DNA of 64,000 bases from Hysterangium stoloniferum (taxonomy: Eukaryota; Basidiomycota; Agaricomycetes; Hysterangiales; Hysterangiaceae). The stretch lies in assembly GCA_015178975.1 (NCBI GenBank), contig WHVD01000024.1, positions 620,001 through 684,000 of the forward strand. The letters are read 5' to 3'. The translations under genes and the position numbers were made by a program. Positions 13,000 through 64,000 of this stretch are shown here, piece after piece (positions within the stretch are counted from its first letter, which is position 1; each line of letters opens with the position of its first letter). The notes beneath the pieces were generated by a model that saw only the letters and a list, made by a program, of their open reading frames with translations, did not search any database and was not told the DNA's origin.

Positions 13000-15002
13000 G
13001 TATGAGATGATCAAAGTCTGATACCTAACCATATGACAAATACTGATGCAACCTCATCCAAGTTGGTGTGCAATGGCAACTTGACTAAAACATTGTAAAG
13101 TGATGACGTAATCTCATTTGGCCTGTCTCTATCTGACCAATACACCCCAGGACACCATATGAAGGCCGTACCCAAAGAGGTCATGATGTTCCTCTGCTGT
13201 CTACAAGGGTAAACCGCGACCACATTTAAAACCATCCCCAGTCATTTCTGAATCAGTCGTGGATGTGGGTCTACAACTTCAGACATGAGTATTTCCAGTG
13301 TATTCAAGGTTGACGCGAGTTATCCCTACCTCACTAAATCAAAACACTCTTGATGTGACAAAGCATAACCCATAACGGGAAACGGAGCGGGAGCAGAGTC
13401 CTAAATCGTGAAAGGTCATTTGACTAAAACGGGAATGGGGCTCGATTAGAGCGGTGATGGGATTCTAAGCGGGGTCCAGTGACTGGTGCATGGGATGAAG
13501 ACGGACATAGACAGAGACGGAGTCCAGGGGAATTCCGGTGACTGACATGTGTCATATTGAGGTTGAACGTAACTAGTCTTGACGTAACGGAGTCTGGGCG
13601 GGAAATCCTATAAACAGACGATTGGTGCTTGTAGCGCGTGGGGGCGTACGGGTTAGTGCCCGGAGTCCGGCGGGATTGTCCAGTCGTAACAGTATCCTCC
13701 CCCGGCGCATCTATCTCTCTCAACCAACCCGACTTACGACCCATGACCTCCGACCTACGACCCACAACCCCCGACTTACGACCTACGACCCACAAACCCC
13801 GCCCGGACTCCCCGGGATCCCCATCCATCCGTTTGAAATTGGACAACACAATCTAGCGAGGGTGCAGCCTATAAGCTGAAGCCAAGTCCTACCGGATATC
13901 CCGTGGGTTTCTCCGGAAACCCGGCCTGTGTGTGTATCCTAACAGTATTTTCTGACTGGATTGTATGTACAACATCTGCCAGTTTATATAGACCATGGAG
14001 CGAATGACATACCAAATCCAGTAATGGCGAAACAAAACTAACAAAACATGAAACGGGAATAGTAAACACCAAATTGGTGTTAGGAATGGAACAGAATGGA
14101 GCGTAGTCCGAATCGTGACAAAGCATAACCCATAATGGGAAATGGAGCGGGAGTGGAGTCCTAAATCGTGACAGGTCATTTGACTAAAACGGGAACAGGG
14201 CTTGATTAGAGTGGTGACGGGATTCTAAGTGGGGTCCGGTGACTGGTGCGTGGGATGAAGATGGACATAGACAGAGACGGAGTCCGGGGGAAGTCCGGTG
14301 ACTGATATGTGTCATATTGAGGTTGAATGTAACTAGTCTTGACGTAACGGAGTCCGGGCGGGAAATCCTATAAACAGACGATTGGTGCTTGTAGCACGTG
14401 GGGGCGTACAGGTTAGTGCCCGGAGTCCGGCGGGATTGTCTGGTCGTAACAAGGACTTTCATCCCAACCCTTTCCAAACCGACTCCACAGTAGTACCTGG
14501 GGCCAATTTCAACTGTTGAAGATGTCCCGACATAATCTGAGGCCATTCCCCAGTCCTCGGCATGACTGCGATATGTGCTGAGGTTGGTTGTCGTGTTGTG
14601 GGATATCCAATACATGTAAACAACACTTGGCGGGTCATGGTAGGTTGTTTCTACTTGCCACTGAAATGTGCAGGACGTGGAAGAAATCACATGGAAATGG
14701 AATCATACTGTACTCACTAACTCCTCAACCCAAGCCTCTATATGGTTTCCAGACAGTTGTATGTGCTGCTCTTCCTCAGGGAGCCGATAACATAAATCAT
14801 GTCCTGGTTCGTTACAGCTCCATCCTTTTTTGAGCTTCAACAGGAATCTTTTCCTCATACCCATCTCAAGAATCTGGTCCTGTTGTGCTGAGCTCAATCC
14901 ACCTGGGGAAACTAAGGATGGCAGTTCCTCAACGCCTTCAAGTTGCGACTCAGCCGTTGCCAAATTGTGATTCCTCAGCGTCATCTTGTTGAAAGTAGAC
15001 AT
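13000..15002 (-). pseudogene. alpha-1: family-alpha gene interrupted by Gypsy LTR pieces and cut by Copia
   Basis: Exon 1 (15,002 down to about 14,709) begins MSTFNKMTLRNHN and holds the family signature WSCNEPGHDLCYR and HIEAWVEEL. A GTGAGT intron leads to exon 2 (to 14,452: TTYHDPPSVVYMYWISHN, CGVGLERVGMKVL). The gene is then split by 13,355-14,451 and resumes at 13,354-13,000 with part of exon 3 (ITSSLYNVLVKLPLHTNLDE). The rest is lost at the Copia LTR. It is closest to alpha-6 in sequence. Not functional as it stands. Confidence 0.75.
13355..14451. mobile_element. Mosaic of three Gypsy LTR pieces in alternating orientation
   Basis: Pieces of the LTR seen whole at 46,411-47,243: 13,355-13,690 (minus, 5' part), 13,691-13,945 (plus, 3' part ending TATCCTAACA) and 13,946-14,451 (minus, 5' part ending GTCGTAACA). 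Together they look like an LTR inserted into alpha-1 and then rearranged by a second insertion or inversion. The plus piece carries the CGACTTACGACC micro-repeats typical of this LTR. Confidence 0.75.
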
Positions 15003-15954: not shown

Positions 15955-16575
15955 GACACGGTAGATCAAAAGACTGTGACCCAACCAAGCTGGGTGATGT
16001 GATAGGTGAGAAGCGTGCTGTCGTCGAAGAAGGTTTTCAAGCACTCAATACTCCAAAATAGGGAATTTGATGTCCTCAAATCAATATGACGTGACAATGA
16101 TGCTATATTAATATTTGTGTCGTCCACTAAAACCGTCAATCCAGCTCCAGCAATATCCCGAAATCATGCATCTTGGTGGATGCAACACATGAAAAGCCGT
16201 ATAGGCTCTTCATACAAGTAAACTCATCTTGGGTGACATTGTCTGTTATGGTTTTGGTGGGCTGCATGAAATCATGTGATGTTGCGACGCACGGTTGTAC
16301 CCAGAATTCAGCCCAACCTCTGATCTCCCTGAGCTCCCCTACAGATAGTTGACGCATGTGGCAGATCGCTTCCACGATATGCATAAGGCGGAAAACAGGA
16401 AAGGGATGATCAAATCCTGTTGAAGAACGGGCGATGTGTACGATAAATGTTGATGCAACCTCATCAAAGTTAGTGTGCAGGGGTGAGTTGAATAAAGCGT
16501 TGTAAAGTGATGAGGTAATTGCAGGTGACGTGTCTCTATCTGACCATGTAACAGGGGCGGACCTGGTGGAGGACT
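15955..16575 (-). pseudogene. alpha-2: middle fragment of a family-alpha gene
   Basis: On the minus strand this encodes diverged pieces of alpha exon 3, including a counterpart of VEAICHVRQLSVEEL, a WVQPCVATSH segment and the HLINQ-type block near 15,990 (GGTGATGTGATAGGTGAGAAGC in the plus strand, as in alpha-5 at 51,519). Frames are disrupted and exons 1, 2 and 4 are absent. Confidence 0.65.
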
Positions 16576-34780: not shown

Positions 34781-35346
34781 GCTGTGATCGACTGGAACTC
34801 TCATATTTACTTGTAGCTCATTTTGATTTCCCTATGGTCGCTTTCCATTATAACGTCATGCTTCCTATGCTGTTTTCGCTTTCATAGGATCCGTCCTTTA
34901 CCCCTGCCTACAAACGCCCCTCTCCATTGGTAGGCTGGCCGTCACTTAGTACGCAGGTTGTCCATCGGGTGTATCTGGGACTCGTAAATCTAGATTCATC
35001 GTCTGCTAAATAGAAGGGGTGCCAGAGTTCATCTCAATCGTTCGCTGTTCGTTCGGGAAACCAAAATGATGCGACAGATTTGCCACGTAAGTAAATCAAA
35101 GGCAGCTCGCATCCAAGTTGTTTCCCTTCATGTTTATTGTAATCCCACATAGCGCATATCAGTGGCATAGACTGACCATAATTCATTGCTTTACAGAGGA
35201 TTCTAGGTAATCTACATACCTGAACCATCTACAATGGTCATAGATCTCCAGATTTCTGATGTGCAAGTCTAGAAATGATCGTTGGGGCCTTTGTTTAAAT
35301 CCCTCCTCCACTGTTAAAACTGTGCACAAAAACGTACATTGCCTCG
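33930..35346 (+). repeat. Dispersed direct repeat, copy 2 (beta unit)
   Basis: This is the counterpart of 1-1,547, minus the MITE. The shared sequence extends well past the coding end at 34,780. Confidence 0.8.
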
Positions 35347-36369: not shown

Positions 36370-37137
36370 AACGGGTAGCTTTATTGTCAATTTTTCAATG
36401 GAAGAGAATTATTTTGGGGAATTTTCACAACACAGTGGCTTACACGGTGTGACGGCCCTCGGGTTTAAGATCAAGAATCCTGTCTATGGAACATTGGGCT
36501 GAAGGCAAGATGAGCCTGAACGCGACATGTATCGCAGTTGTGACGGGGGAGGCCTCGTTCAGACCTTGAATGATATCTTATCTAAAGCATTGTCGTTCAT
36601 GATTCGGACGTTAGTCTAGGCACGGCTATTGCCCCGAAATGTATTAACACATGTATCAGGACAACGGCAGAGATCGCGGGGATAATGCAAAGTGGCTATG
36701 CGCTTTCTTACGTCGGCTCAAATCATATAGATATAATATCTCCAACCCCGGCAGCATAATGAGTTGAATAAAGGCCAACGCTATTGGGCTCATCCTGGTT
36801 TGGTTGAGATGTGTCGGTATTATGGAAGAGAAATGATTAGAACGTGTGTCCAAATGATGGTGTAAGACCTGTGTCAGGGGAACCATGTTCCTGCAACGCT
36901 GAGATAGGGTATTAAATAGACCCTCCCGACACACGAGTAGATGGTGCGGTGACCACGCAAAGGAAAGAACATGCGGTGAAATGTAAACCATGAAGCCAAT
37001 AAGTGATGGATCGTTCATTTCTTGCGCCGCGCATTATGTCACAATATGGAAGGAGTGAAACGAGAATGGCGATGGTATGGAGGCCGCACACTGTGGTAAA
37101 CGCAGGTTAGAGCTCGGAAGATCCAGCTATCAGACAT
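36370..37137 (-). pseudogene. alpha-3: 3' end and downstream region of a family-alpha unit
   Basis: Sequence from 36,370 matches 53,807-54,540 and 50,610-51,340 in order. The last 300 bp contain the start of exon 4 reading on the minus strand (counterparts of CDIMRG, LDFTV and TPSTR seen in alpha-5). It ends abruptly at about 37,137. Only the gene tail and the shared downstream block remain. Confidence 0.7.
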
Positions 37138-46200: not shown

Positions 46201-46410
46201 TGTTTTCAAAGATGGGGGTAATAAAGAAGAAGAAATTTCTATTTTTTCAAATTTATATATAGGCTCATCGTGTTTGAACCTTACCTTCCAGATCACATGA
46301 CTCTTTGACACATATGTGTAACTGACATGACTTTTGACACATGCATGTAGCTGACAAGAACCTTATCCAGGTCAGAGCCTCTTTGGGACTTCGGCATAAA
46401 GGGAGGATAC

Positions 46411-47243
46411 TGTTACAACCGGACAATCCTGCCAGACTCTGGGCACTAACCTGTATGCCCCCACACGCTACAAGCACCAATCGTCTGTTTATAGGATGTC
46501 CCGCCCGGACTCCGTTACGTCAAGACTAATTACGTTCGACCTCATTAAGACACATATCAGTCACCGGACTTCCCCCGGACTCCATCTCTGTCTATGTCCG
46601 TCTTCGTCCCACCCATCAGTCACCGGACCCCGCTCAGAATCCCGTCACCGCTCTAATTGAGCCCTGTTCCCGTTTTAGTCAAATGACCTGTCACAATTTA
46701 GGACTCCGCTCCCACTCCATTTCCCATTATGGGTTATGCTTTATCACGATTCGGACTCCACTCTGTTCCGTTCCTAACACCAATTTGGTGTTTACTATTC
46801 CTGTTTCATATTTTGTTAGTTTTGTTTTGCCATTACTGGATTTGGTATGTCATTTACTCCATGGTCTATATAAACTGGCAGATGTTGTACATACAATCCA
46901 GTCAGAAAATTAGCTTAGATTCCCCCCAGTAATCTAATAACATTTTCCACTCTAAAGCCTTACTTGATTCACATTGCTCGCACTAGTTGGAGCCCACAGG
47001 CTCCGGCGCATGTATCTCTCAACTATCTCGACTCACGATCCACGACCTCCGACTTACGACCCACGACCCCCAACTTACGACCTATGACCCATGACCCCCA
47101 CCTGGGCTCCCCGGGATTCCCGTCCACCTGTCTGAAATTGGACAACACAATCTAGCGAGGGCGCAGCCTATAAGCTGAAGCCAAGTCCTACCGGATATCC
47201 CGCGGGTTTCTCCGGAAACCCGGCCTGTGTGTGTATCCTAACA
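46411..47243 (+). repeat. Chromovirus 3' LTR
   Basis: 833 bp, from TGTTACAACCGG to TATCCTAACA, preceded by a purine tract (AAAGGGAGGA) as expected for plus-strand priming. It carries a TATATAAACTGG box near 46,865 that may be the promoter, and CGACTTACGACC micro-repeats near 47,040-47,100. Confidence 0.9.
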
Positions 47244-48400
47244 GCACTCCTATTAGCTGACCATTCAGTTGTAGTGCTACTTGATGATTCCTCTGACTCA
47301 TCGCTACTGGAGGAACTGCTCAAATCAGAGGGTGGTCCGAATTCTCCTTGCCCTTTGATGGCGAAGTATCCACCCTCAGGCACTTGCGAAAACTCTCACA
47401 TATCGGCTAGTCACCCTATTGGACTGTGGAGCCCTCAAAGACTTGCTATTCTGCCTCTCACTCTGGGCAGTAGAGTGTGGGCATGAATTTGCTTTATACT
47501 GGTCCCCCAGGATATTCTCGCCCTCCATTCACGCCTTCCCCTTACTGAATAGAGATGACCCTTCTGGTCTTGTTCCTTCAGCGCGTACAGGCTCCAATAC
47601 TTCAGATGGAGGTTCGGTATCTTGTACCTCAATGACAATGGCATTTAGGGTTACTGATGGCTTAGGTCTTGCTGCCAAAAATTTGGACCCTTGAATCTCC
47701 CATGGATGCACAGTGTTGGGTAGGGTCCATGACCTGGGCAGCAGCCCCAATGGATCCTCATCAGAATCAGAGCTATCTGCCGATCTAAACTCTGGAGCTG
47801 AGCGGTGGTCCAGAACCGTTATCTCAGCTTCCTCCTGCCTGCTTTCGTCTTTACTACTGCCACCCCCCACCTCAAACAACTTTGGGAAGTAAAGTGACTG
47901 CATTTGTAGAAGACGTTTTGCGGCTTGATGCTTCATTCAGAAAGTCTTTTGCGGAGAGGCAATCTCTTCAGGGTGCAGAAGACCATACTGCTGAGTCCAG
48001 TTATGGAGGGAGATCTGAGTACTCGAATACTCATTGTAAGTAGGAAAAGGGGTTGTCTTCTCCTCATTACATATTGACTCTTTTCTCGAGGTGTCACCCT
48101 TAGTCCACTTAGAGTGTGCATTGAGGAATCAGAGGTGTATAGTGATACCCCTTCCATCTCAGCATCACGGTCCATCCTCCCCCCCCCCCCCCCTTCCCTG
48201 CTAGTGCAGAGCTAAGAGGTTCGGGGCCCATGGCCTGCACAGGAGAAGAAGTATGACTTACAGAATCAAGAGCCATATTATCAACCTTATCAACATCTGC
48301 CCGTCATCAAGCAACTCTCTTTCTCCAAAAGGGGATCGCACTTCGGACTGTGCCTCGTTGAGTGATTGGTTGATTGATTTCGGACATCTTGAGGGAAGTA
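47244..48400 (-). mobile_element. Gypsy G1, 5' Gag portion
   Basis: This is the other side of the G1 Gag region, separated from 29,345 by the chromovirus. The minus strand starts near 48,390 (MSEINQPITQRGTV) and encodes acidic Ser-rich Gag sequence (SSSSSSDESEESSSS) up to the GCACT duplication. A poly-C run lies at 48,180-48,193. Confidence 0.7.
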
Positions 48401-48802
48401 TTTATGTTGAATTACAGGTGTGTTTGTAGCAAAAAAACCTAGTGGGTGATCAGTCCACTAGTAGTGTTAATAAAGAATGTTAAATAGGACTCAATATACT
48501 CAAAAAGTGTAAGGGTTCCGCTATGAAGATGTAGCGTAATCCCTCAGAGAGCTCTTGCAAAAGGGAACGAAATGAGTAGGACTAGGTTCCTATTCAAAAG
48601 AGACTATCGTAACCATACAAGATATCTACCTATTTATGATAATAGTAGTAGGGCCCCGGGCAACAAGTCAAAACCCCATGAAACAAACACAATAGTAAGA
48701 CACCTCCGGTCATGCGGGCCAAACAGCCCGATACCAAGTCCTCCCTAACCCAAGTCCACTACCGTTACAGGTTCATTGTCTCACCACGATATTAATGGAA
48801 TA
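48401..48802. other. Probable G1 leader or LTR remnant
   Basis: No coding sequence. By position it should hold the G1 leader and 5' LTR, but without a 3' LTR in the window the borders cannot be set. Confidence 0.35.
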
Positions 48803-49480
48803 TCACCATGTCCCAAAAGTGCATGACTGAAAAGAGTTAGCAACCGCGAGTGGTCTTAACCATTTTCCACACAAATACCAACAAGTTCTGACAGGAATCG
48901 TGTTACATTGATAGTGCAAACCCCCCACCGGGGCAACCATTTTCCTCTTATACCTATCCGGGATTAGAATGAAACGTGATTGACGTGGAAGGTAGACAGC
49001 GTGGCATATGGTTTCCACGATATATGCAAAGCCGGCCAATGACTGAAGTGTCTTGACTATCAAAGGATGATAAATTTACAGCAACTTTTACCATAAATTT
49101 TGATACAATATCATCAACGGTAGTGTGCACCATAAGAAGGTATCACCCAATATGCCAGAAGGCTGGCAATGTGGCCACATAGAGGATTAACACCACCGGA
49201 AAAGGCGTAATATAATAACGGTCGCTCCCGAATTTGAGGGAGTCCGTGGATGTACGAAGACGTGAGTATTTAGATGTATTAAAATATTGACACTAAGCAA
49301 TCCCAACCCCATTAAATCAATGCTCCCGTGAATTACTGTACTTAGTCTTTCCAGAGTTAAATTCTTGTGGAGGAACGTGTAATACTATGCTGTGAGACCA
49401 TTCCCCAGTCCGCGGGATGACGGCGATATGTACTGGGGTAGGATGTGGCTTTGGTAAACCTCCCTATCCAGGTCGTCGAG
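48803..49480 (-). pseudogene. alpha-4: strongly decayed family-alpha copy
   Basis: Ordered short matches to alpha exons 3 and 2 remain on the minus strand: a counterpart of IVEAVCHVRQLS near 49,020, the intron/exon stretch GTGGATGTACGAAGACGTGAGT near 49,250, and the CCATTCCCCAGTCC block near 49,408 (alpha-5: 52,509). Frames are lost. It is the most diverged copy. Confidence 0.6.
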
Positions 49481-49554
49481 GGGCCCGGGCACAAAATTGT
49501 GCCCGGGTTCGGCACAGTCCTATCGTCCTCGAAGCTTCGCCCAGAATATGCCTC

Positions 49555-51130
49555 TCATTCTCTACTTCGACGTGCACATATGACAGCTAAGAGTAGTTTG
49601 GTGAATTTTCACCGCATAATATAGCAGCTTTAGAGTTCTTGAGGTTATATTTCAGCGTCATACAGTTTTTCTGTACATTCTCAGCAGGAGGGCATGCTGC
49701 ACCGGTATGACGCAGGAAGATGTAGAGTTAAGGTCTAGGTATAATTTTGGCACTGTGATTGCAGACGATATCAGGGTCGTATTAGTAAACCGCGCATTTA
49801 ATTCTTCATGCTTGGGACACATAGTAAAACGATTAAGTCGTATTATTGTCTGTCTTGTTCAGACTCGAAATGAACTAATTCGAAATGTCAATTGGTGGAA
49901 TTATCTCCAGTCAACTGAAATGGGAGGAGTAGGGGAAATGTTTGGATAGCGAGTAAAATAAAATTTCCTCGCGTGTCGTGTGAGGCGAACGACTGGAATA
50001 TCGAGACACAACATAAACGGGATTTCCTGTGGATTGGCACCTCCATGGGGCCGGTCACCGTGGATATTTTTCAGGGCTTATTTGATTGGAACTACGAGCT
50101 ACCTTTCTCTCGTCCAATGTGAAAAGTCATGACTGATGAGAAGTGCAGGTATTTTGATCATCGTGTTGTCCAATGGCTTGGCCCGGGTTCCTGTTCCCGC
50201 AAGGAAACAACACAAGAATCCAGGTGGCACGGCCTCTTTTGACCACCCGTCCTAGTGGTATACGATTGAAATTTTTATCACTAGTAAATCCGATATGACT
50301 ACAGCTACGGTCAGTGCTCGCAAGATATTCAAAACCAGTCTAGAGAACCTCGCAGCGATCGTTACAAGTGACTATATTCACCTTTGAATCGAGTCAAATT
50401 ATGTAGCTTCATTCAACTGTCAAATCCACGTTCTGTTTGAAATGATTGTCTTTTATAAATCGGATGACAGTCTAGACACCGGTGGTGTCCGCAAGTGTAT
50501 TGCACGGATGTATGGCATAAACGCCTAAGCTCGCGGCGAGGGTGAAAAGCGATTTTATGCGCTGTGATACGTCGCGACCCATGGCAGCTTTGCTTTCAAG
50601 TATTCAATGAAGTAGAATTAGCTTAAGGAATTCACCCAACAGTGCCTCGCACAGTGTGAAGGACGTCGGTTCTAAGATCATGGATCCTGTCGATTCAAAA
50701 CTGGGGTGAAGGGAACATGAGCTTGAAGGAGACATGCATCGAAATGGAGACGTGGGAGGCTTTTTTCAGACCATCTACAATATCTTATTTAAATCACATG
50801 TCGCTTATTCGGAGGTTAGTCCAAGCATGACTAGTCCGCTCAAATGTATTTAACACGTGTATGGGGACAACAGCAGAAGTCCCGGAGATGATACAAAGTG
50901 ACTATATGCGTTCTTATATCGGCTCAAATAATATACCTTTATAACATCTGCAACCCCGGCTGCAAAGTGGGTCGAATAAAGGGCGACGCAATTGGGCTGC
51001 TCTTGACTTGGTTGAGATGTGTCACATTATCGAAGAGAAATGAGTAGCAAGTGCATCGAATCGATGGTGCAGTACCTTCGTCAGGGCAGCCGTGCTTCCC
51101 CAAAACTCATATCGGCATCTAATTAGACCC
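49555..51130 (-). repeat. Downstream block D of family alpha, copy D1
   Basis: Non-coding sequence 3' of alpha-5. Landmarks (ACAAGTGACTAT, AATTATGTAGCTTCAT, GAAATGATTGTC, CTCGCACAGTGTGAAG) recur in the same order in D2 (53,400-54,322) and inverted in D3 (56,260-56,900) and D4 (60,180-61,730). It is long, and I see no coding sequence in it. Confidence 0.7.
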
Positions 51131-51133
51131 TAC

Positions 51134-52948
51134 CTACCCACGAGTGGAAGGTGTCGCGACGACACAAAGGAAGGAACGCACGGTGAAATCCAAACACTCA
51201 AGGCAGAAACGGATGTCCTCGTCATTGGTAGAGCCGCGCATTATGTCACAATGTGGAAGGAGTAAAATGAGAATGGCGATGGGACCGAGGCTGCGCACCG
51301 TAGTACACGCAGATTCGGGGTCGGAAGATCCAGCTATCAGCTTCAGAGTCAACGCGATTATGTGCTCCCCACTCCAGAGGAGATCCCAATTTGGAATCAT
51401 GTGCGTCACAATAAGGCTGTAGGAAGTGTCGTAGGCGGATGTAAGACGGTGCTGGAAAGTCAAATATTGTGAACGTACCGCACGATGGGCCCAATTAACG
51501 ATGAAACCATATTCAGCTGGTTGATGTGATCGGAGAGAAGCGTGCTGTCGTCGAAGAAGGTTTTCAAGCACACAATACTCCAAAATAGGGAATGTAATGT
51601 CCTCAAACCGACATGATGTGACAATAACGCTATATTCATATTTGTGTCGTCCACTAACACCTTCAATACAGGTCCAGCAATATCTCGAAACCATGCATCT
51701 TGGTGGATGCAACACACGAGAAGCCGTATAGGATCGTCATAATGGAGAGATAGTTGCCGGTGACTCTGTTTGTTATGGCTCTGGCTGGATGACATGATGT
51801 GTGATGTCGAGACGCACGGTTGTAACCACCTTTCAATGTAACCTCTGATCGCTGTGAGCTCCTCTACAGATAGTTGGCGCACGTGGCAGACCGCTTCCAC
51901 GATATACGGAAGGTCGCTCATTTGTAACGGATTATGATAGGTTAAAGAACCGGCAAGGTTTATGATAAATGTTGATGAAACCTTATCTAAGTTGGTGTGT
52001 AGCGGCGACTTGATTAAAGTGTTGTACAGTGATGACGTGATTGCAGTTGACGCTGAACCTAACAAAACACCGGGACACCCTAAGAAGGCCGAACCCAAAG
52101 ATGCCATAAGCTGGGTCGTGTGAACGTTCCTCCTCCACGATAAATACCCCTCCAACGTCACTAAAATACTCGCCGCTCTGCGCCGAATTTGAGGTGGATA
52201 TGTGGGTCTACGAAGACGTCTGTATTTCGTATTCAAGATTGATGGTGAATTATCCCTACCTCAATAAGTCAACACTGTCTTGAACCACTCTTCCCAGTCT
52301 TGGAGGCGTGAGATGCTGGTGTAGACCCTTTCTAATGTCGTCTTGACCCAATAGACTCGCGATGTGCTGGTATATTGTCAGCTTCGCAATTAGCGAAGCT
52401 ATCTTGGCAATGTGAAGGAATTTCATTCCAACCCTTTCCAAACCGACTCCACAGAAATACCCGGGCCCGATGTCAATCATTGAAGTTGTCCCGACATACT
52501 GTGAGGCCATTCCCCAGTCCTTGGCATGACTGCGATATGGGCTGAGGATGGTTGTCGTGTTGTGGGATATCCAAGACATCTTAACAACAGTCGGTGGGTC
52601 ATGGTAGGTCGTTTCCCCTTGCCACTGCAATGTCCAGGATGCGATAAAAATAACATGGAAATGGCATCATACTTTACTCACTAACTCCTCAACCCAAGCC
52701 TCTATATGTTTTGCAGACAGTTGTATGTGCTGCTCTCCATCGGGGGGCCGGTAACATAAATCATGTCCAGCTTCATTACAGCTCCAACGTTCCTTGAGCT
52801 TCAACTGGAATCTTTTCCTCATCCCCATCTCAAGCATCTGGTCCTGTTGCGCTGAGCTCAATACACCCGGGGAAAGTAAGGGTGGTAGTTCCTCAACGCC
52901 TTCAAGGCACGACTCAGCCGTTCCCAAATCGTCATTCATCAGCTTCAT
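51134..52948 (-). CDS. alpha-5: intact four-exon gene, 547 aa, family unknown
   Basis: Exons 52,682-52,948, 52,260-52,624, 51,479-52,207 and 51,134-51,416; introns of 57, 52 and 62 nt with GTGAGT/GTAGGG/GTACGT donors and AG acceptors. The lengths sum to 548 codons including the stop, with no internal break. The start is the ATG at 52,948 (MKLMNDDLGTAES). Exon 1 holds a Cys/His cluster (RWSCNEAGHDLCYR) and LSAKHIEAWVEEL; exon 2 holds TTYHDPPTVVKMSWISHN and GPGYFCGVGLERVGMKFL; exons 3-4 are helical, Leu-rich and possibly repeat-like (SPLHTNLDKVSSTFIINL, VCCIHQDAWFRDIAGPVL, LPHCDIMRGSTND). No signal peptide or clear membrane span. A GHDLC-type motif near HIPLT/WA-like residues recurs in Agaricomycete hypothetical proteins (recollection). 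It is the only undamaged member here and may be expressed. Confidence 0.75.
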
Positions 52949-52989
52949 CTCGTTGAAAATAGAATTTGTGGGTAGCAGTCGTACTTAGA

Positions 52990-53345
52990 CTCGAAGGGGG
53001 TGTCGCGCTTTTATGCCGCAGTCATTTGGGGAGTTAATTCCACCAAGGTACAGCCTTGTGGCCGTGCTTACACAGGTTTCACAGCAGTTGATCCCTGCCG
53101 TCGTGGTCCCTCCATCTTCCTTGAACCATATAGGCTCCAGTGTTCTAACCTATCTCACTACTTTCTTACGCTTCCCGCTGAAGTCATACAACATCTAATA
53201 ATAGTGTCACATAGTATAGTATTTCTGGTGTTCTTGAGCATCAGAAATACGACTTTTCTGATATTGGAGAAGTGACATAGCCATGGATAATATAGATGCT
53301 GTGAAGAGCGATGCTTCCTGGCTGCTGCTTCAAGTTGGCGGTGTG
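52990..53345 (-). promoter_or_regulatory. alpha-5 upstream region (shared block U)
   Basis: Matches 15,003-15,430 and, inverted, 57,990-58,330. TAATAGTGTCACATAGTATAG and CCATGGATAATATAGATG are the best-kept pieces. It probably contains the promoter; no factor site is identified. Confidence 0.45.
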
Positions 53346-53399
53346 AACCTTAAACCTGATCTGGCGAGATTGGTTGGCCCAGCTTCCTGTTCTCCCAAG

Positions 53400-54322
53400 A
53401 AAATGACACGAGAATAACGATGTGACCGCCCTTTTTGAGATGTCGTAGTGGTATTCGACTGAAATTGTTATCCCTAGTATATGCAATGTGATTTCAGCGA
53501 TGGGTAGTCCTCGGAATATATTTAACACCACTCGAAAGAATCTCGTAGCGATCATTACAAGTGACTATCTTTGCTTTTACATTGTATGACATTATGTAGC
53601 TTCATACAGCTTTCAACCGGGTTCTGTTGAAATGATTGTCATTTATAAATATGATGTCAGTCTAGCCATGGGTGGTTCCCGCAAGTGTACTCAATGAAAG
53701 TATGGCATGAACGGGTGCAACATGCAGAACTCATAGTGGTGGTGAAAAATAACTATATAAACTCTTATATTGATCGACCTACGGCAAATGTAGTGTCGAG
53801 TTTTCAATCGAAGAAAATTAGTTTAAGGAATTCTCCCAACACATTGCCTCGCACGGTGTGAAGACCCGCAGCTTGAAGATTAATGGATCTTGTCAACTGA
53901 ACACTGGCCTGAAGGTATGATAAGCCTGAACGAGACATGCATCGAAATGGTGATGGGGGAAGCCTTTTTTAGACCTTCAGTGATATCGTATTTAAATCAA
54001 GTGTCGTTCATGATCCGGATGTTAGTCTAGGCACGGCTAGTGCCTTGAAAGGTATTCAACACATGTATGGGGACAACTACAGAGCTCACGGCGGTAATAC
54101 AAAGTGACTATATGCGTTCTTACATCGGTTCAAATCATGTAACTTTATAACATCTGCAACCCCCGCTGCAAAGTGAGTCGAATATAGGACGACACTATTA
54201 TGTTTCTCCTGGTTTGGTTGAGATGTGTCGGCATTATCGAAGAGAAATGATTAGGAAGTGGGTCCAATTGATGTTGCAGGACCTTTGTGAGGGGAATCAT
54301 GTTCCTCCACCACTGATATGGG
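53400..54322 (-). repeat. Downstream block D2 (3' of alpha-6)
   Basis: Second direct copy of block D, joined on its right side to alpha-6 and on its left to the alpha-5 upstream block, so alpha-5 and alpha-6 are tandem units. Confidence 0.7.
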
Positions 54323-56062
54323 GTCTAATGAGACCCTACCAACACACGAGTGGAAGGTGTAGCGACTATGCAAAGGAAAAAACGCACGGTGGAATCCAAA
54401 CGCTCAGCCCAGTAACTGATGTATTTGTCATTGGTCGAGCCGTGCATCACGTCACAATGTAGAAGGAGGGAGATGAGAATGGAGATGGTATCGAGGCTGC
54501 GCACTGTGGAACACACTGATTCGGGCTCGGAAGATCCACCTATCAGCTTCAGAGTAACCTCCATTATTGTCGCGGCAGAATATAAGAGCGGGTAATTTCG
54601 ATTAGCTTCCATCAGAACCACGTTGGCAGTACAGTGCCATGGGAGGTAGGAGGGTTTTTAAGGGAAAGATATTGTGAACGGACCTTACGATACACTCAAT
54701 GAATGAAGAAACGACATTGAGCTGGTTGATGTGATCGGTGAGAAGCGTGCTGTCGTCGAGGAAGGGTTTCAAGTAGTAAATACACCAAAACAGGGAACGT
54801 GATGTCCTCAAATCAATATGACGTGTCAATCACGCTACATGCATGTTTATGTCGTCCACTAAAACATTCAATACAGCTCCGGCAATATATCGAAACCATG
54901 CATCTTGGTGGATGCAACACATGCCAAGCTTTATAGGATGCCCACAATCGGGAGATAGTCGCCAGTGATTTTGCCTGTTATGGTTTTGTGGGGATGAAAT
55001 GATGTCATGTCGTGACGCACGGTTGTAACCACAATTGTAACCTCTGATCACCGTGACTTCCTGTCCAGATAGTTGACGTACGTGGGAGATGGCTTCTACG
55101 ATAATCGCAAGGCCCCAAAGGGGTATGAGATCAAAGTCTGATAGAGAACGAGCTAACCGTACGACAAATGCTGATACAACCTCATTTAAGTTGGTATGCA
55201 ACGGCGACTTGACTAAAACGTTGTAAAGTGATGACGTAATCTCATTTGGCCAGTCTCTATCTGACCAATACACCCCAGGACACCATATGAAGGCCGCACC
55301 CGAACAAGGTCATGATGTTCCTCCGCTGTCTACAAGGGTAAACCGCGACCACATTTAAAACCATCCCCAGTCGTTTCCGAATTTCAGTCGTGTATGTGGG
55401 TCTACGACTTCAGACATGAGTATTTCCAGTGTATTCAAGGTTGACGCGAGTTATCCCTACTTCACTAAATCAACATACTCTTGAACTACCCTTCCAAGTC
55501 TTGGCAATGTGAAGGACTTTCATCCCAACCCTTTCCAAACCGACTCCACAGTAGTACCCGGGGCCAATTTCAACTGTTGAAGATGTTCCGACATAATCTG
55601 AGGCCATTCCCCAGTCCTCGGCATGACTGCGATATGTGCTGAGGTTGGTTGTCGTATTGTGGGATATCCAAGACATGTAAACAACACTCGGAGGGTCATG
55701 GTAGGTTGTTTCTCCTTGCCACTGAAATGTGCAGGACGTGGAATAAATCACATGGAAATGGCATCATACTGTACTCACTAACTCCTCAACCCAAGCCTCT
55801 ATATGGTTTCCAGACAGTTGTATGTGCTGCTCTTCATCGGAGCCCGATAACATAAATCATGTCCTGGTTCGTTACAGCTCCATCCTTTTTTGAGATTCAA
55901 CAGGAATCTTTTCCTCATCCCCATCTCAAGCATATGGTCCTGTTGCGCTGAGCTCAATGCACCTGGGGAAACTAAGGATGGCAGTTCCTCAACGCCTTCA
56001 AGTTGCGACTCAGCCGTTGCCAAATTGTGATTCCTCAGCGTCATCTTGTTGAAAGTAGACAC
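54323..56062 (-). pseudogene. alpha-6: family-alpha pseudogene, sister of alpha-1
   Basis: Exon 1 begins at 56,062 (MSTFNKMTLRNHN, as alpha-1) but shifts frame after DLCYRAP (about 55,845; one base short of the other copies). Exon 2 keeps CGVGLERVGMKVL but then lacks the IASLIAKLTIYQ segment and jumps to the exon end. Exon 3 shifts frame near 55,290 and resumes YWSDRDWPNEITSSLYNVLV. Exon 4 reads SSEPESVCSTVRSLDTISIL and LDSTVRFFLCIVATPSTR. All four exons are therefore present but not translatable as one protein. Confidence 0.75.
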
Positions 56063-56259
56063 TGGTGGGTAGCAGTCGTACTTAGACTCGAAGAGGGTGT
56101 CATGCTTTTATTGCGCAGCCAGTCGGAGAGTTAATTCCACCAATGTACAGCTTGGGGCCGTGATTAGACAGCACTCACATCAATTAATCCCTGCCTTCCT
56201 CGTCCCCTCATCTTCTTTGAACCATATAGGCACCAGGGTACTACGTTACCTCTCAAACC

Positions 56260-56900
56260 GAACGTGGATTTGAGAGTTTTATGAAGCTACATAATTTGAG
56301 TTCATTTCAAGGAAAAGATAGTCACTTGTAATGAACGCTGCAAGGTTCTCTCGAATGATGTTGATTGAATATATTGTGAGCACTGACCGTGGCTGGAGTC
56401 ACATCGGAGTAACTAGCGATGACAATGTCAATGGCATACCAATACGTGTAAAAGGCGGCGATTCCACCTTTATTCCTGTGTTATTCATTTGGGAGACCAG
56501 GTGAGGTCATTGGACAACACGATAATCAAATTACGAGCACTTCTCATCAGTCATGACCTTTCACATTGAACGAGAGAACGGTCGCTCGTGGTTCCTATCA
56601 AATAAGAGCTCACAAATAGTCACGACGACCCGCCTCATCGAGCAGCCAATGCACGGGAAATCTCGTTTATGTTGTGTCTCAATATTCGTACGCGTCACAC
56701 GACGCGCAAGGACAATTTATTGTCCCCGGTATCCGGATATATCGCCTATAATACCCCTTAATCGTTTCATTATTTGTACCCAAATATGAAGGATTAGACT
56801 CGCGGTCTACTAATACGACACTGACAGCTACGCATCACGAAGGGTATTCAAGTTCGACCCCTCGAGAAAGAGTCTGAAATCCTCTTGTATAATGGCAGAC
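56260..56900 (+). repeat. Downstream block D3 (inverted)
   Basis: Reads like D4 (60,790-61,780): CGTGGATTTGAGAGTT, AGTCACTTGTAATGA, GGACAATTTATT, ATATGAAGGATTAGA. It is not attached to a gene copy here; it abuts the truncated alpha-6 upstream block. Confidence 0.65.
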
Positions 56901-57145
56901 AAAAGGCACGTATACGCATAGCACACCATGGTGAATCTTGACATAACGGAAGAGCTCTGCCTGGGACACAATCATTCGTCTAACTTGTCATTTGAGTTCG
57001 AAGAGCATTCTCCGCGCATCAATAGTGTGATGCTGGTGGGAAACATTCCAATCAGACAGAGAGATAATAATAAGGCGATCTGCTAGAAAGGATTGAATTA
57101 ATACAAATTGTGATCGACACGCCACAACAAGAAAAATTTAACTCC

Positions 57146-57210
57146 GACACTTGCGTAGCTCAATGTGTTAGAATATCGGGCTGTGCACGAGGTTCTACAC
57201 CGGCAATGTC
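57146..57210 (+). ncRNA. Degenerate tRNA-like stretch
   Basis: GACACTTG at the start can pair with CAATGTC at the end. An A-box-like TAGCTCAATGTGTTAGA and a B-box-like GGTTCTACACC lie at tRNA spacing. The D and T stems pair poorly and the whole is about 65 nt, so it is a tRNA relic or SINE head and not a working tRNA. The B-box half recurs, inverted, near 15,775. Confidence 0.3.
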
Positions 57211-57989
57211 CCGCCCCATTGTTCTTTGATTTTAGCATAACCCTTTGTTGCCACACGGGGACTATTCTCAAGGCGTATATAGGTAGTATAGGTTTCTTGT
57301 AATGACACTACCTATTGCCTCCTACGACAGGCAGAGCTCAAACGGAAATTATATTTATCTTGCCTCATGATTCTGTCAACTTTTTCGGCGAAAATATAAC
57401 CAGACCGATCGAGGACGAGCGCAATACTGTCTGAGTGATATTGTTGGTTATAAACGCATGGCGGGTTTCATGCGTAATTACGGTTATATATACTAACAAC
57501 GAGAGCGGTAATGAATGTGGGTATTGACGACCCCGGTCACTATATGACTCCGACTGCTCGCTTTACCCCAAAAATCTAACAGATTCTTATGAGGTTCGAG
57601 AACTCATTTCAACACAATGAAACCCACAATGAAACCTACCTTGAGAACTCTGGGATTCCTCTCTGTATGCCTCAGGGGTTCCACAAAATTCAAGCCGCTT
57701 AGCATGGCAAGGGTGAATGAGGAAATTGTTGAGATTATTTCCGCAGTTCTAAATAATACTCTCAGTGAGTGATAAACCTTCACTGAGAGGCTACGCGAGC
57801 GGTCTCTGTGCTAATATAGTATCTATAAGCGTAATGTAACCATACAGTTACCCTACACTGCGTTCCAGCTTACCAAAGGTAGCTTACATAATGCTAATAT
57901 TTCAACAGAAATCACATTGTCTACAATGAACCCGAAATAAACCCGACTAGACTATCACGTGACCTGGGTTTCTCCTTATTGAAAGTTGG
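57211..57989. other. Spacer without a recognised gene
   Basis: AT-rich with scattered similarity to 15,600-15,945 (near 57,240-57,380) and weak similarity of 57,600-57,740 to 63,850-63,970. No gene. Confidence 0.35.
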
Positions 57990-58333
57990 ATAAAATCAAA
58001 CAGGAAGCGCTCAATCTTCCCTGATAAGGTTTAAGGTTCACAGCTTGAATGCAGAAGCCGGAAAGCATCGCTCTTAACAGCATTTATGGCAATGTCACTT
58101 TTCGAATATCAGAAAAGTCGTACTGCTTTGAACTCTGATGCTTAAGAACCAGAAATACTATGCTATCGGGTGACAATCGACTTCACTATTATTAGATGCT
58201 GTGTGACTTAAGCGAGAGGCGTAAGAACGTAGTGGGGTAACTTAATACACTGCATTTTATATGGCTCATGGCGGTGACGCGATATCCCATTCGAGCGTAA
58301 ATACGACTACTACCCACCTCTACGTTCAACGAG
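57990..58333 (+). promoter_or_regulatory. alpha-7 upstream region (shared block U, inverted)
   Basis: Mirror of 52,990-53,345: GGAAAGCATCGCTCTTAACAG, then CAGAAATACTATGCTATCGG, then TAATTAGATGCTG-like text before the alpha-7 start at 58,334. Confidence 0.45.
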
Positions 58334-60173
58334 ATGACCCTGGGGAATCACGATTTTGAAACGGCTGAGTCGCACCTTGAAGGCGTTGAGGAACTACCAC
58401 CCTTAGTTTCTCCCGCTGTATTGACCTCCGCGCAACAGGACAAGGTCAATGAGGCATGGATGAGGAAAAGATTCCGGTTGAAGCTCAGGGAGCGATGGAG
58501 CTGCAATGAACCAGGTCATGATCTATGTTATCGGGCCCCCGATAACGAGCAGCACTTACAGCTGTCTGCAAACCATATAGAGGTTTGGGTTGACGAGTTG
58601 GTGAGTCAAGTATAATGCTATTTCCATGGGATCTGTGTCACATCGACCACATTTCAGTGTCAAGTAGAAACGAGCTACCATGACCCACCAACTGGTGTTA
58701 AGATATCCATCAACAAGAAATCCAACCTCAGCCCATATCCCAGTCATTCCAGGGACTGGGGAATGATCTCACGGTATCTTGAGACATCTTCAAGTGTTGA
58801 AATTAGCCCCGGGTATTTCTGTGGAGTCGGTATGGAGAGGGTCGGGATGAAAGTTCTTCACAGTGCCAAGATAGCTTCGCTGATGGTAAAGCTGACAATA
58901 TACAAGGAAATCATAAGTCGACTGCATCGAGAAGACGGGGCCTTTAACAAGTTTGTAAAGACGTATTTGACACTGACAAGACTGGGAATACTAGTTCAAG
59001 AGAGTGTTGATTTAGTGAGGTAGGGATAACAAAGCGTCATGCTCGAAATACTCATGTCTGAGGCCGTAGACCCACATACCCGGCTCAAATTCGGAAACGA
59101 GCGATAATGGTTTTGCACAGCTTCTCAATCCCTACACAGCGGAGGAAGAAATGTGCCACTACCCAGGTTATGACATCTTTGGCTGAGGCCTTCGGAATGT
59201 GTCCCGGCGTTTATTGGTCACATAGAGACGCGTCAACTGCGATTACGTCATCACTTTACAACGTTTTAGTCAAGTCGCCGCTGCACACCAATTTTGATGA
59301 GGTTGCATCGACATTTATTATACACATTTCCGGTTATCTAAAAGGATTTAATTATCCCTCACTCCTTTTGCACCTTGTGTATATCGTGGAAGCGATCTGC
59401 GACGTGCGTCAACTATCTGCAGAGGAGCTCACAGCGATCAGAGGTTACATTGAATTCTGGTTACAACCGTGCGTCGCGACATCACATAATTTCATCTAGC
59501 GACCCACCAAAACCATAACAGACAGAGTCACCGGCAACTATCGCTCCGTTATGACAATCCTATACGGCTTCTCGTGTGTTGCATCCACCAAGATGCATGG
59601 TTTCGAGATATTGCTGGAGCTGTATTGAGGGTTATACTGGACGACATAAACACGCATATAGCGTCAATGACACGTCATATTGATGGACAGGCATCAGATT
59701 CCCTATTTTGGAGTATTTACTGCTTGGAAACCTTCTTCGACGACAGCACGCTTCTCTCCGATCACATCAACCAGTTGAATATGGTTTCTCCGTTCATTGG
59801 GCCCATCGTGCGGTACGTTCACAATATTTGACTTTCCAACACCGTCTTATCCCCGCCTACGACACTTTCCTACAGCCTGATTCTGACGCACATGATTCCA
59901 AATTGGAAACTCCTCTGGTGTGGGGAGCAGATAATCGCGTTGACTCTGAAGCTGATAGCTGGATCTTCCGACCCCGAATACGCGTGTACTACGGTGCGCA
60001 GCCTCGATCCCATCGCCATTCTCATCTTACTCCTTCCACATTGTGACATAATGCGCGGCTCTACCAATGACGAATTCATCCGTTCCCGCCTTGAGTGTTT
60101 GGATTTCACCGTGCGTTCCTTCCTTCGTGTCGTCGCGACACCTTCCACTCGTGGGTCGGTAGGTTCTGATTAG
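58334..60173 (+). pseudogene. alpha-7: nearly intact family-alpha gene with one frameshift
   Basis: Exons 58,334-58,600 (267 bp, as alpha-5), 58,658-59,019, 59,070-59,812 and 59,876-60,173, with the same splice positions as alpha-5. It begins MTLGNHDFETAES and keeps RWSCNEPGHDLCYR, ISPGYFCGVGMERVGMKVL, SPLHTNFDEVASTFIIH, and ends in VATPSTRGSVGSD. Exon 3 is 14 bp longer than in alpha-5 and shifts frame near 59,490-59,500 (a stop follows TSHNFI). Otherwise it is open. It is a recent pseudogene, or an active allele with a sequencing error. Confidence 0.75.
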
Positions 60174-60179
60174 ATGCCG

Positions 60180-61730
60180 ATATGAGTTTTGGGGAAGCAC
60201 GGCTGCCCTGACGAAGGTACTGCACCATCGATTGGATGCACTTCCTAATCATTTCTCTTCGATAATGCGACACATCTCAACAAAATCAAGAGGAGCCCAA
60301 TTGTGTCGCCTTTTATTCAACCCACTTAGCAGCTGGGGTTGCAGATGTTATAAAGATATATGATTTGAGCCGATGTAAGAACGCATATAGTCACTTTGTA
60401 TCATCGCTGAGAGTTCTGCTGTTGTCTCCATACATGTGTTAAATACATTTGAGGTGACTAGTCATGCTTGGACTAACCTCCGAATGAACGACATATGATT
60501 ATGAGCGGATGTGATTTAAATAAGGTGTTATAGAAGGCCTGACAAAAGCCTCTCCCTGCTCAATTTCCATGCATGTCTCGTTCATGCTCATGTTCTCTTC
60601 ACGCCAGTGTTGAATCGACAGGGCCATATCGAATACTTCCAAGCAAAGCTGTCATTGCTCGCGACATATAAGAGCGCATACAGTCACTTTTCACCCTCGC
60701 CGCAAGCTTAGCAGGTTCCTCGCGTTATGCCATACATCCGTGGAATACACTTGCGGACACCACCAGTCTTTACAATGTCATCCGATTTACAAAAGACAAT
60801 TATTTCAAACAGAACGTGGATTTGAGAGTTGAATTAAGCTACATAATTTGACTCGATTTAAAGGCGAATATAGTCACTTGTAATGATCGCTGCGAGGTTC
60901 TCTAGACTGGTGTTGAATATATTCCGAGCACTGACCGTAGCTGGAGTCATATCGGATTTACTAGCGATAAAAATTTCAATCGCATACCACTAGGACCTGT
61001 TGTCAAAGGAGGCCGTGCCATAGACCCCACGACCTTCACACCGTGCGAGGCACTGTTGGGTGAATTCCTTAAGGTGATTCTACTTCAACTTGATAACAAA
61101 GCTGTCATAGGTCGCGACGTATAAGAGCCCATACAATCATTTGTAATGATCGCTGTGAGGTGCTCTAGACTGGTTTTGAAGATATTGCGAGGACTTGCCG
61201 TAGCTGTAGTCATGTCGGACTTGCTAGCGATAAATATTTAAATGGAATACCACTAGGAAATAGTGTCAAAGGAGGCCGTTCCACCTTTATTATTACGTTG
61301 TTTGGAAGCCGGGCCAACCCATTGGACAACACGATGATCAAAATACCAGCACTTGTCATCAGTCATGAACTTTTACATTGGATAAGAGAAAGGTAGCTCG
61401 TGGTTCCGATCAAATAAGACCTTAAAAATAGCCACGATGACCGGTTCCATGGAGGTGCCAATCCACAGGAAATCCCGTTTATGTTGTGTCTCAAAATTTC
61501 AGTCGCTTACCTCACACGACACCCGAGGACAATTTATTTTACTCGCTATCCAGGCATTTCCCCTACCTCTCTCAAGTCAGTTGGCTGGAGATCATTCCAC
61601 CAATTGTGATTTTGAATTTTTTCATTTCGAGTCTGAACAAGACAGACAATAATACGACTTAATCGTTTCACTATTTGTATGCAAATATGAAGAATTAGAT
61701 GCGCGGTTTACTAATACGACCCTGACGACT
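60180..61730 (+). repeat. Downstream block D4 (inverted)
   Basis: Mirror of D1: it continues directly from alpha-7 as D1 does from alpha-5. It contains an internal partial duplication (the AATGATCGCTG(C/T)GAGG stretch occurs near 60,885 and 61,147). Confidence 0.7.
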
Positions 61731-62270
61731 CGGCATAACCAAGGATATTCAAACCCTCATCCACCTCGAGAAAATCCACTCGGAAATCCACTTGGATTTT
61801 CCAACCGACTCGCCAACTCCCGTGATCTTCCTTTCTTTGCTCAGATCTTCCAGAAGATGCAAGTCGCTTGATATGGGATGGGGACACGAGGAATTCAGTC
61901 CGCATTGGCGGGATAAAGAATTTTTTAAACACAATGTATTGTGGACACAATATTGATAGTATGGATGAGGTCAAGAGCAGCCGATGGGGACAGGTGAAGA
62001 TGGCATCTCTGTATTTATACTTATTATTATCTATGGCAACATGATTACTCAAATGACAGCCTGATTGACTATATAATTATAGCATTTATGAACTCTAGAG
62101 AGTCATCTCACAGACGTATGTACTATTATCTGCCACGGCTGTACGGGGATGTCACGGAGGCTACGAAATTAGTGTGATAAATTAGGAGGATGCTGTAAGA
62201 GTATCTTGGGGGCTGGAATATTTAATGAGGGTCAATGGCCACATTTAAACGTGAAGGGAATTTCATGCAG
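61731..62270. other. Extra segment interrupting block D4
   Basis: D1 reads continuously where D4 is split; the extra 540 bp starts near TCGGCATAACCAAGG. D3 carries the beginning of the same extra sequence. The minus strand has a 113-codon open frame (61,711-62,052) of unknown meaning. GGAAATCCACTTGGATTTTCC near 61,780-61,802 is an imperfect palindrome. Confidence 0.4.
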
Positions 62271-62500
62271 TATATCCTCTGCAAGCACAGTCCCAGCATT
62301 CTAGCTGGAAATTGACTCCCTCTGCCTGAATCATGAAAGTGCAGCATGCCCTCCTGCTGAGAATGTACAGAGAAGCTGTATTACGTTGAAATATAACCTC
62401 AAGAACTCTACAGCTGCTATATTATGCCGTGACAATTCACCAGAATACTCCTAGCTGTCATGTGTGTGCTTCAAAGTAGACGATCTCACTTGTGTAGCAG
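62271..62500 (+). repeat. Distal end of block D4
   Basis: GCAGCATGCCCTCCTGCTGAG and CTACAGCTGCTATATTATG mirror 49,690-49,555, marking the outer limit of the alpha-5/alpha-7 inverted repeat. Confidence 0.65.
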
Positions 62501-64000
62501 TAGCATCTTCTTCGAACTCCATATCAGGGTTGGAAAAGAGGGTGTTTGACCTGGCGAACGTCTTGCTCCATTACTCGACACGATTTCAAATCATGTAACG
62601 CCGACATACTGGGAACAAACTAACAGGAGATACCATCATTCCGCTTGTTTCAATCGCTTTGGAGGGAGAATAAATATTGAAGAAACCCGCAAGGTTTGAG
62701 GCAATTTGAGAGCACTTCTTCAGTGCTGAGTCCGTGACGAAAACTGCATCGATGATACCTCAGAATGCTTGTGAGATTCTTGGTTTTTGACTAATTGCTA
62801 TATATATTGTAGGATTACATGTGTACATCTCCGCGGCAACAATAATTCCTGCACCATTTTTGAGCCGAACAGAGATGAGATGCATCAGGGATTGGGGAAT
62901 TTCTCCATTTATTATGTAGAATCCCTAGCCTCCCTACACTTCCTAGATCTATAGTAAGCTTTATACCGACTAGTAACTAGGGATCTCGCGAAAGTAGTGT
63001 GTCTAGCCGTGTCTAGCTGAGCTAGCTCTCCTAGATGACTCTAGACAATATAGACGGCATACTTACTGATCTTCCCGCTTTCCTGATGTGGTAAGAAATG
63101 TTTAAACCGATCCGAGACGAGGTGTGACCATTGCCACTGTCTTCAATGGAGTTGCTGTCATTTTCGGTCTTGCCCCAGGATACTTAAGTTTCATTGGAGT
63201 CGAGAGTGATCCCAACGGTAATCTGATGAAATATTTTTATTGCTATGCTGCTTCACTGATTATTAACCCCCGATTAATTATATTATAATACGTTACCTTT
63301 GCAAGCACCGTATCCTGTACCCAGTAGGTAATGACAGTAGCCATCGATCAGCTAAGAAGTTCGCATGAACCTACAGACTTCATTATTTCCTTGATTAACA
63401 ATCGTGAGAAATCAGAAGATCGGACATTGATTGGGGGGACACACTGAGACTTGCCATGAATGACCATCATGTGGGATAGGAGAGGGACCATTACGGCGAC
63501 CCTTCTGAAGCTCAAAGTGGAGTGGGCAGCAACGAAGGGGCAGATGAGATGACAGACACAGGGCGCGTGTAAGCGCATCCGGGAATGAGGGCTCTGTTCA
63601 CATTGGAAGGACTCCGCCTACAATAGTTCAAACTACGGGTGGGTCACAATTATTGACCTACCTTGTCATCGTAGTATCAAATAATCAGATCCATGCATCG
63701 AGAGCGTGACCTTGGGGATAAATATTCCACTCAGTCTACCGGTAATGTGCTAGCGGGAAGTAAGTATTACCTGACAGGGATTATAAATGCAATTTCGTAA
63801 TAAATATTCTGATTGACGCACCATAATCGCAATAATTCCAAGTTAGACGCTCATGTACCTTAATGAATTCCACAATGAGAGATATGGTCTTACCTCATGC
63901 TGTGTCTAGCTCAGACGCTGCACAAATTCAAGCCGATTGATATGACAAGGTTAAGGAAGAAGTCACGTTGCTTACCAGTAAGTAGACTAGACTATCACTT
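62501..64000. other. No recognised gene
   Basis: A short plus-strand open stretch near 63,115-63,215 (TIATVFNGVAVIFGLAPGY) is hydrophobic and followed by GTAATC, so a membrane-protein exon is possible, but no partners were found. A minus-strand open frame at 63,348-63,578 has no recognisable features. The window ends in sequence weakly like 57,600-57,740. Confidence 0.3.

What the first reader, a model, noticed from the sequence alone, without database searches (positions are those of the whole stretch)
48803..62500. Unnamed multicopy gene family (alpha) clustered with its own flanking sequence
At least seven copies or fragments lie in one window (13.0-15.0, 15.96-16.6, 36.4-37.1, 48.8-49.5, 51.1-52.9, 54.3-56.1 and 58.3-60.2 kb). 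Copies share not only exons but an upstream block and a 1-1.5 kb downstream block, so a unit of 3-4 kb is being multiplied. One copy (alpha-5) is fully open over four exons. I see no terminal repeats or transposase, so the copying mechanism is unclear: segmental duplication, or an unrecognised mobile unit carrying a gene.
Basis: partly seen in the sequence, partly recalled or inferred. Interest (0 to 1): 0.75.

Follow-up and report, generated by a model that had tools for sequence, protein, structure and literature searches.

The report
Tandem gene family of unknown function
A stretch of what looks like a fungal genome holds a cluster of related genes of unknown function, multiplied by ordinary duplication and copy-to-copy exchange; two copies look intact and the other copies in view are broken or partial.

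Summary
The repeated family is real: all seven reported copies or fragments are confirmed, and an eighth unit's upstream block starts near 63.6 kb. Alpha-5 and alpha-7 (not alpha-5 alone) are both fully open, over five exons rather than four (529 and 536 aa, 71% identical). Their five exon gaps are all multiples of three; three of four introns differ by other lengths. Random substitution at the observed load would make about 10 stops, and none of 20,000 simulations gave zero, so the frames were kept; yet dN/dS is about 0.9 (0.68-1.19). Homology between copies stops at different places. The alpha-5/alpha-6 joint is a tandem duplication at an 8-10-bp shared word, and alpha-5 is a mosaic (exons 1-2 nearer alpha-6, later parts nearer alpha-7). 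Best reading: birth-and-death evolution by duplication, inversion and gene conversion. A mobile unit is unlikely, though a 17-nt inverted pair brackets alpha-5 inside the shared sequence. The protein has no significant match in Pfam, NCBIfam, PHROGs, PDB, prokaryote genomes or viral contigs; a low-confidence model of exons 3-4 is all-helical. Function, expression and organism remain unknown; no eukaryotic genome collection was available.

The parts
51134..52948 (-). alpha-5 gene, intact: exons 52948-52682, 52624-52260, 52207-51818, 51763-51479, 51416-51134; 529 aa
   Evidence: exon coordinates worked out by hand from the exon and intron lengths
58334..60173 (+). alpha-7 gene, intact: exons 58334-58600, 58658-59019, 59070-59468, 59528-59812, 59876-60173; 536 aa
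   Evidence: exon coordinates worked out by hand from the exon and intron lengths
54325..56044 (-). alpha-6 pseudogene: 1-nt frameshift in exon 1, deletion in exon 2, one in-frame stop in the exon 4 frame
13000..14984 (-). alpha-1 pseudogene: exon 1 and the first part of exon 2 open, then the LTR element at 13355-14451, then an exon 3 remnant
15988..16546 (-). alpha-2 fragment (exons 3-4), one in-frame stop, joined at its 3' side to the upstream block of alpha-1
36374..37133 (-). alpha-3 fragment: exon 5 with one stop, plus downstream block
48800..49460 (-). alpha-4 relic: degenerate exon 2-3 pieces
49561..51133 (-). downstream block of alpha-5 (its far end, 49561-49771, in part resembles the upstream block of alpha-1)
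52949..53372 (-). upstream block of alpha-5; ends at the duplication junction with the downstream block of alpha-6 (word AACAGGAAGC at 53382-53391)
53374..54324 (-). downstream block of alpha-6
49892..49908 (+). left arm of a 17-nt inverted pair bracketing alpha-5; the downstream block of alpha-7 has the same arm at 61587-61603
53030..53046 (-). right arm of that pair; the upstream blocks of alpha-1 (15067-15083) and alpha-6 (56127-56143) have the same arm
56253..56890 (+). piece of a plus-strand downstream block abutting the upstream side of alpha-6: inversion-type junction without evident shared word
56962..58268 (+). upstream block of alpha-7, shared in pieces with alpha-1 (15158-15983)
60174..62480 (+). 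downstream block of alpha-7 (shared parts 60174-61797 and 62272-62480)
63549..63972 (+). start of an eighth unit's upstream block at the window edge

Best explanation
A protein-coding multigene family (probably of a basidiomycete fungus, and probably lineage-restricted) undergoing birth-and-death evolution. Units of gene plus flanks of about 3-4.5 kb multiply by tandem duplication through recombination at short shared words, are rearranged by at least one inversion, exchange sequence by gene conversion (also between inverted neighbours), and then mostly decay by frameshift, deletion and LTR-element insertion. Two copies in view remain intact and encode an intracellular, largely alpha-helical protein of 529-536 aa whose amino acids change nearly as fast as silent sites. 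Shown here: the copies, the open five-exon frames, the retention of those frames, the differing limits of homology, one tandem junction and the mosaic. Inferred: that the proteins are made, that they are cytoplasmic and solenoid-like, that they bind rather than catalyse, that the family is restricted to one lineage, and that conversion rather than another exchange made the mosaic.
For: Two copies open over five homologous exons with GT..AG introns. Exon gaps 6, 9, 3, 3, 3 (5 of 5 multiples of three), intron gaps 4, 4, 10, 3, 2, 1 (1 of 6), 5' flank 5 of 9, 3' flank 0 of 1 (on the alignment). Substitution simulation: mean 10.4 new stops, 0 of 20,000 without any. Amino-acid identity 0.707 against 0.659+-0.012 at random, 0 of 1000 reaching it; changes somewhat more conservative than random (P 0.014). 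Alpha-6, alpha-2 and alpha-3 break under the same model. Tandem junction with shared word. Differing limits of homology. Mosaic: longest alpha-5=alpha-7 run 17 polymorphic sites, reached in 0 of 10,000 permutations; exons 1-2 nearer alpha-6. Intron 4 is 93.5% identical, introns 1-3 75-80% (Fisher P 0.003), so the step in identity is not due to selection on protein.
Against: dN/dS 0.90 (0.68-1.19) does not exclude neutrality on its own, and exons 2, 4 and 5 show no excess of amino-acid identity over random; in exon 5 the changes are, if anything, more radical than random (BLOSUM -1.50 against -0.66+-0.50). The splice model was chosen with both copies in view. The intron 3 acceptor (..ACAGAG|T) is the second AG after the putative branch point. 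The simulations place one substitution per site and ignore clustering. No expression data. A 17-nt inverted pair brackets alpha-5 (3 of 300 shuffles), which a plain duplication does not need. No relative outside the window was found, so the family's span is unknown.
Confidence: 0.78

Rival explanations
1. An unrecognised mobile unit that carries a gene, or its remains: an older element of about 3.15 kb with short terminal inverted repeats, since spread by duplication.
For: Fragments 14-40 kb away (alpha-1, -2, -3) in a window rich in transposable elements. A 17-nt inverted pair (16 of 17 complementary) at 49892-49908/53030-53046, present in 3 of 300 shuffles; one or the other arm is kept in the blocks of alpha-1, -6 and -7.
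Against: Homology between copies runs past both arms and stops at differing places; no target-site duplication beside the arms; the junctions read are a duplication and an inversion type. Three regions were searched for such pairs and only this one gave a near-perfect one spanning a gene. No transposase-like match.
Confidence: 0.1
2. A set of pseudogenes: alpha-5 and alpha-7 are open only by chance and no protein is made.
For: dN/dS near 1; the other copies in view are broken or partial.
Against: 0 of 20,000 simulations without a stop; 5 of 5 exon gaps in multiples of three; amino-acid identity above random.
Confidence: 0.12
3. The intact copies are under positive, diversifying selection as self/non-self or host-interaction factors (a stronger form of the best explanation).
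For: Frames kept while dN/dS is about 1; mosaic exchange between copies, a pattern known (recall) from diversifying families.
Against: No part with dN/dS clearly above 1 could be shown with two intact copies; relaxed selection gives the same value; exon 1 is at 0.51.
Confidence: 0.15

Closest known systems
Birth-and-death tandem multigene families of eukaryotes (concept recalled; tandem arrays and gene conversion are the subject of papers seen only as listings with abstract starts, e.g. PMC1855330, PMC7475035)
   Same: Neighbouring copies with flanks, pseudogenes, conversion-like mosaics.
   Different: The encoded protein has no described relative in the libraries searched; one inversion within the array.
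Alpha-helical repeat or bundle proteins (armadillo, TPR, 14-3-3)
   Same: Weak model of exons 3-4 is a row of 11 helices of 8-24 residues.
   Different: Mean pLDDT 55.9; none of 171 Foldseek matches reaches E 0.001 (best 0.99); 34 of the 50 listed titles name 14-3-3, so the armadillo idea is not singled out; no Pfam repeat model matches.

Membership tests
Birth-and-death tandem multigene family | Several related copies, adjacent, with intact and broken members | tested here: met
Birth-and-death tandem multigene family | Duplication junctions between neighbouring copies | tested here: met
   one junction read, at 53373
Birth-and-death tandem multigene family | Sequence exchange among copies | tested here: met
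Birth-and-death tandem multigene family | Copy-number difference between related species | not testable with these tools
   no genome held; no eukaryotic collection
Transposable element | Constant unit ends | tested here: not met
   limits of homology vary between copies
Transposable element | Terminal repeats | tested here: inconclusive
   no long ones; one 17-nt inverted pair lying inside the shared sequence
Transposable element | Encodes a transposase, integrase or reverse transcriptase | tested here: not met
   no Pfam match of alpha proteins or of four flank ORFs
Transposable element | Target-site duplications | tested here: inconclusive
   none beside the 17-nt arms of alpha-5 (read by eye); no constant ends to test otherwise
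Alpha-solenoid (armadillo/HEAT) protein | Helical-repeat fold | tested here: inconclusive
   all-helical low-confidence model
Alpha-solenoid (armadillo/HEAT) protein | Match to a repeat profile | tested here: not met

The most novel reading that the evidence does not exclude
An undescribed family of intracellular helical proteins in a fungus, kept open but diversifying at near-neutral or faster amino-acid rate through tandem duplication and ectopic gene conversion, acting as variable recognition proteins (for example in non-self recognition or defence against genome parasites).
Probability: 0.12. Interest if true: 0.6.

Novelty: new member of a known kind. Interest (0 to 1): 0.3.

Why it matters
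It is an example of how a gene family without any described relative at hand is multiplied, mixed and lost in a repeat-rich genome. If the two intact copies are expressed, their kept frames with weakly constrained amino acids make them a candidate for variable recognition proteins; otherwise this is ordinary gene-family turnover.

Tried and rejected
Mobile-unit reading: judged unlikely because the limits of homology differ between copies. On rechecking I found a 17-nt inverted pair around alpha-5; because of it the odds of that rival were raised from 0.06 to 0.10 and those of the best explanation lowered from 0.80 to 0.78. The alternative frame for exon 4 (VTGNY...) used was dropped: it runs into a stop in alpha-5 and alpha-7 and needs a further intron, whereas the frame RQLSL... 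runs to a GTACGT..CTACAG intron whose length difference (62/63) explains the shift seen in alpha-7. The four-exon model was rejected because reading through intron 3 shifts the frame in alpha-7. The low ti/tv of alpha comparisons (0.65-1.21 in 10 of 11; alpha-1/alpha-6 exon 3 gave 4.5) against 1.2-10.5 in seven other repeat pairs was checked; it also holds in alpha flanks, so it is not a sign of selection on protein. That call's aligner scatters small gaps, so its gap counts were not used. A target-site duplication for the LTR element inside alpha-1 was sought by eye and not found. Structure of exon 2: pLDDT 40.6, uninformative. No tRNA found. Six paper searches (one of them with no hit) showed no such family in the titles and abstract starts listed; no paper was opened. 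Organism: not identified; 'basidiomycete' rests on recalled intron sizes and element types, not on any call.

Full report
Observation. Self-comparison confirms a family of at least seven copies or fragments with shared flanks; five dinucleotide shuffles of the window give no hits at E 1e-10. The weakest, alpha-4, is a relic but exceeds all 60 shuffles (408 against a maximum of 168). An eighth upstream block begins at about 63.55-63.97 kb. No whole genome is held.

Gene model. Alpha-5 (minus) and alpha-7 (plus) share five exons of 267/267, 365/362, 390/399, 285/285 and 283/298 nt and introns of 57/57, 52/50, 54/59 and 62/63 nt, all GT..AG. Both are open from ATG to stop: 529 and 536 aa, 71% identical over 526 aligned codons. 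The last exon of alpha-7 is 15 nt longer because its stop lies further on. In the alignment the exon gaps are 6, 9, 3, 3 and 3 nt; intron gaps are 4, 4, 10, 3, 2 and 1; of nine 5'-flank gaps five are multiples of three. The same model fails in alpha-6 (frameshift, deletion, a stop), alpha-2 and alpha-3 (a stop each) and alpha-1 (LTR element). The model was chosen with both copies in view, which helps it; the failing copies are the control.

Selection. Between alpha-5 and alpha-7 dN/dS is 0.90 (bootstrap 0.68-1.19; exon 1 0.51, exons 2-5 0.98-1.04). The 272 substitutions (112 transitions, 160 transversions), placed at random, make 10.4 stops on average and never fewer than one in 20,000 trials. 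Amino-acid identity is 0.707 against 0.659+-0.012 in 1000 stop-free simulations; per exon the excess is seen in exons 1 and 3 (P 0.014 and 0.003) and not in 2, 4 and 5 (P 0.29, 0.54, 0.28). So the frames were kept, while most residues are weakly constrained or diversified; two intact copies cannot tell these apart.

How it multiplies. Alpha-6 and alpha-5 are direct tandem copies: the alpha-6 downstream block breaks off at 53374 and the alpha-5 upstream block begins, with AACAGGAAGC at the joint. In the window that ten-base word occurs only there and in the upstream blocks of alpha-1 and alpha-7; the alpha-5 downstream block has the first eight bases at the matching place (nine of ten in all), the alpha-7 downstream block the last six. 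So the shared word is 8-10 bp; no chance estimate was made for it. Alpha-7 is an inverted copy with longer shared flanks; at 56252/56253 the upstream side of alpha-6 meets a plus-strand downstream block, an inversion-type joint with no evident shared word. Limits of homology differ between copies. A 17-nt inverted pair (16 of 17) brackets alpha-5 at 49892-49908 and 53030-53046, found in 3 of 300 shuffles; its left arm recurs beside alpha-7 and its right arm beside alpha-1 and alpha-6. Since shared sequence continues past both arms and no target-site duplication is seen, I do not take it as the present unit end, but it could be the trace of an older element.

Exchange. Alpha-5 is a mosaic: over the bins that hold most of exons 1-2 it agrees more with alpha-6 (30 and 29 of 60 polymorphic sites, against 15 and 14 with alpha-7); from exon 3 on more with alpha-7, most from intron 4 through exon 5 into the 3' flank (48 and 47 of 60); the last two bins (downstream, near the end of the alpha-7 stretch used) favour alpha-6 again. 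The longest alpha-5=alpha-7 run is 17 sites (0 of 10,000 permutations); the runs for alpha-5=alpha-6 (8; 170 of 10,000) and alpha-6=alpha-7 (6; 408 of 10,000) are weaker. Intron 4 follows the exons (93.5% against 75-80% for introns 1-3), which points to gene conversion.

What the protein is. No match in Pfam up to E 5 (exon pieces up to E 1); in the PDB one chance-level hit, E 0.35; none in viral contigs, prokaryote species genomes, PHROGs or phages; in NCBIfam two weak hits of one member each, E 0.055 and 0.12. scan short conserved patterns and are not exhaustive. Apart from Pfam and the PDB these collections are prokaryotic or viral, so absence from them says little about fungi. A model of alpha-5 exons 3-4 (contiguous translation, including 18 intron-derived residues; 6 rows) is all-helical, pLDDT 55.9, pTM 0.55; none of 171 Foldseek matches reaches E 0.001 (best 0.99), and of the 50 listed, 34 titles name 14-3-3, the rest including TPR and armadillo chains. 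This fits a helical binding protein but does not show it. No signal peptide is evident by eye.

Verdict. An ordinary mechanism (tandem duplication, inversion, conversion, decay) acting on a gene family without a described relative in the libraries at hand. Kind known, member new.

Noticed in passing
49892-49908 and 53030-53046: 17-nt inverted pair (16 of 17) bracketing alpha-5, 3 of 300 shuffles; single arms recur at 61587, 56127 and 15067.
   Followed up: partly
13355-14451; related pieces 29344-31001 and 46401-47244: About 1.1 kb element with 337-bp direct terminal repeats (93% identical; 21 of 23 differences are transitions, 14 of these in CpG), lying in alpha-1 without an evident target-site duplication.
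   Followed up: partly
5280-7148 and 21565-23426: Inverted pair of about 1.9 kb (85% identical in the self-BLAST); the second copy holds most of a 366-aa ORF without Pfam match.
   Followed up: partly
17192-21304: ORFs that look by recall like a retroelement with reverse transcriptase/RNase H and tyrosine recombinase; three of them were scanned and had no convincing Pfam match (best E 0.012 and 0.19, below the curated cut-offs).
   Followed up: partly
42490-44870, 25457-26443, 31768-32760, 10228-11040: Retroelement pol pieces: RVT_1, RNase H, integrase, SH3_Tf2-1 (RVT_1 at 31768-32760 just below its cut-off); Pol_BBD at 10228-11040.
   Followed up: partly
1-1543 and 33932-35332: Direct repeat of about 1.3 kb, 87% identical over its main part, outside the alpha family.
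   Followed up: no
13000-13353 against 55123-55484: Alpha-1/alpha-6 exon 3 remnants next to the LTR element differ mostly by transitions (18 of 22), unlike other alpha comparisons; spread of cytosine methylation from the element is one possibility.
   Followed up: no
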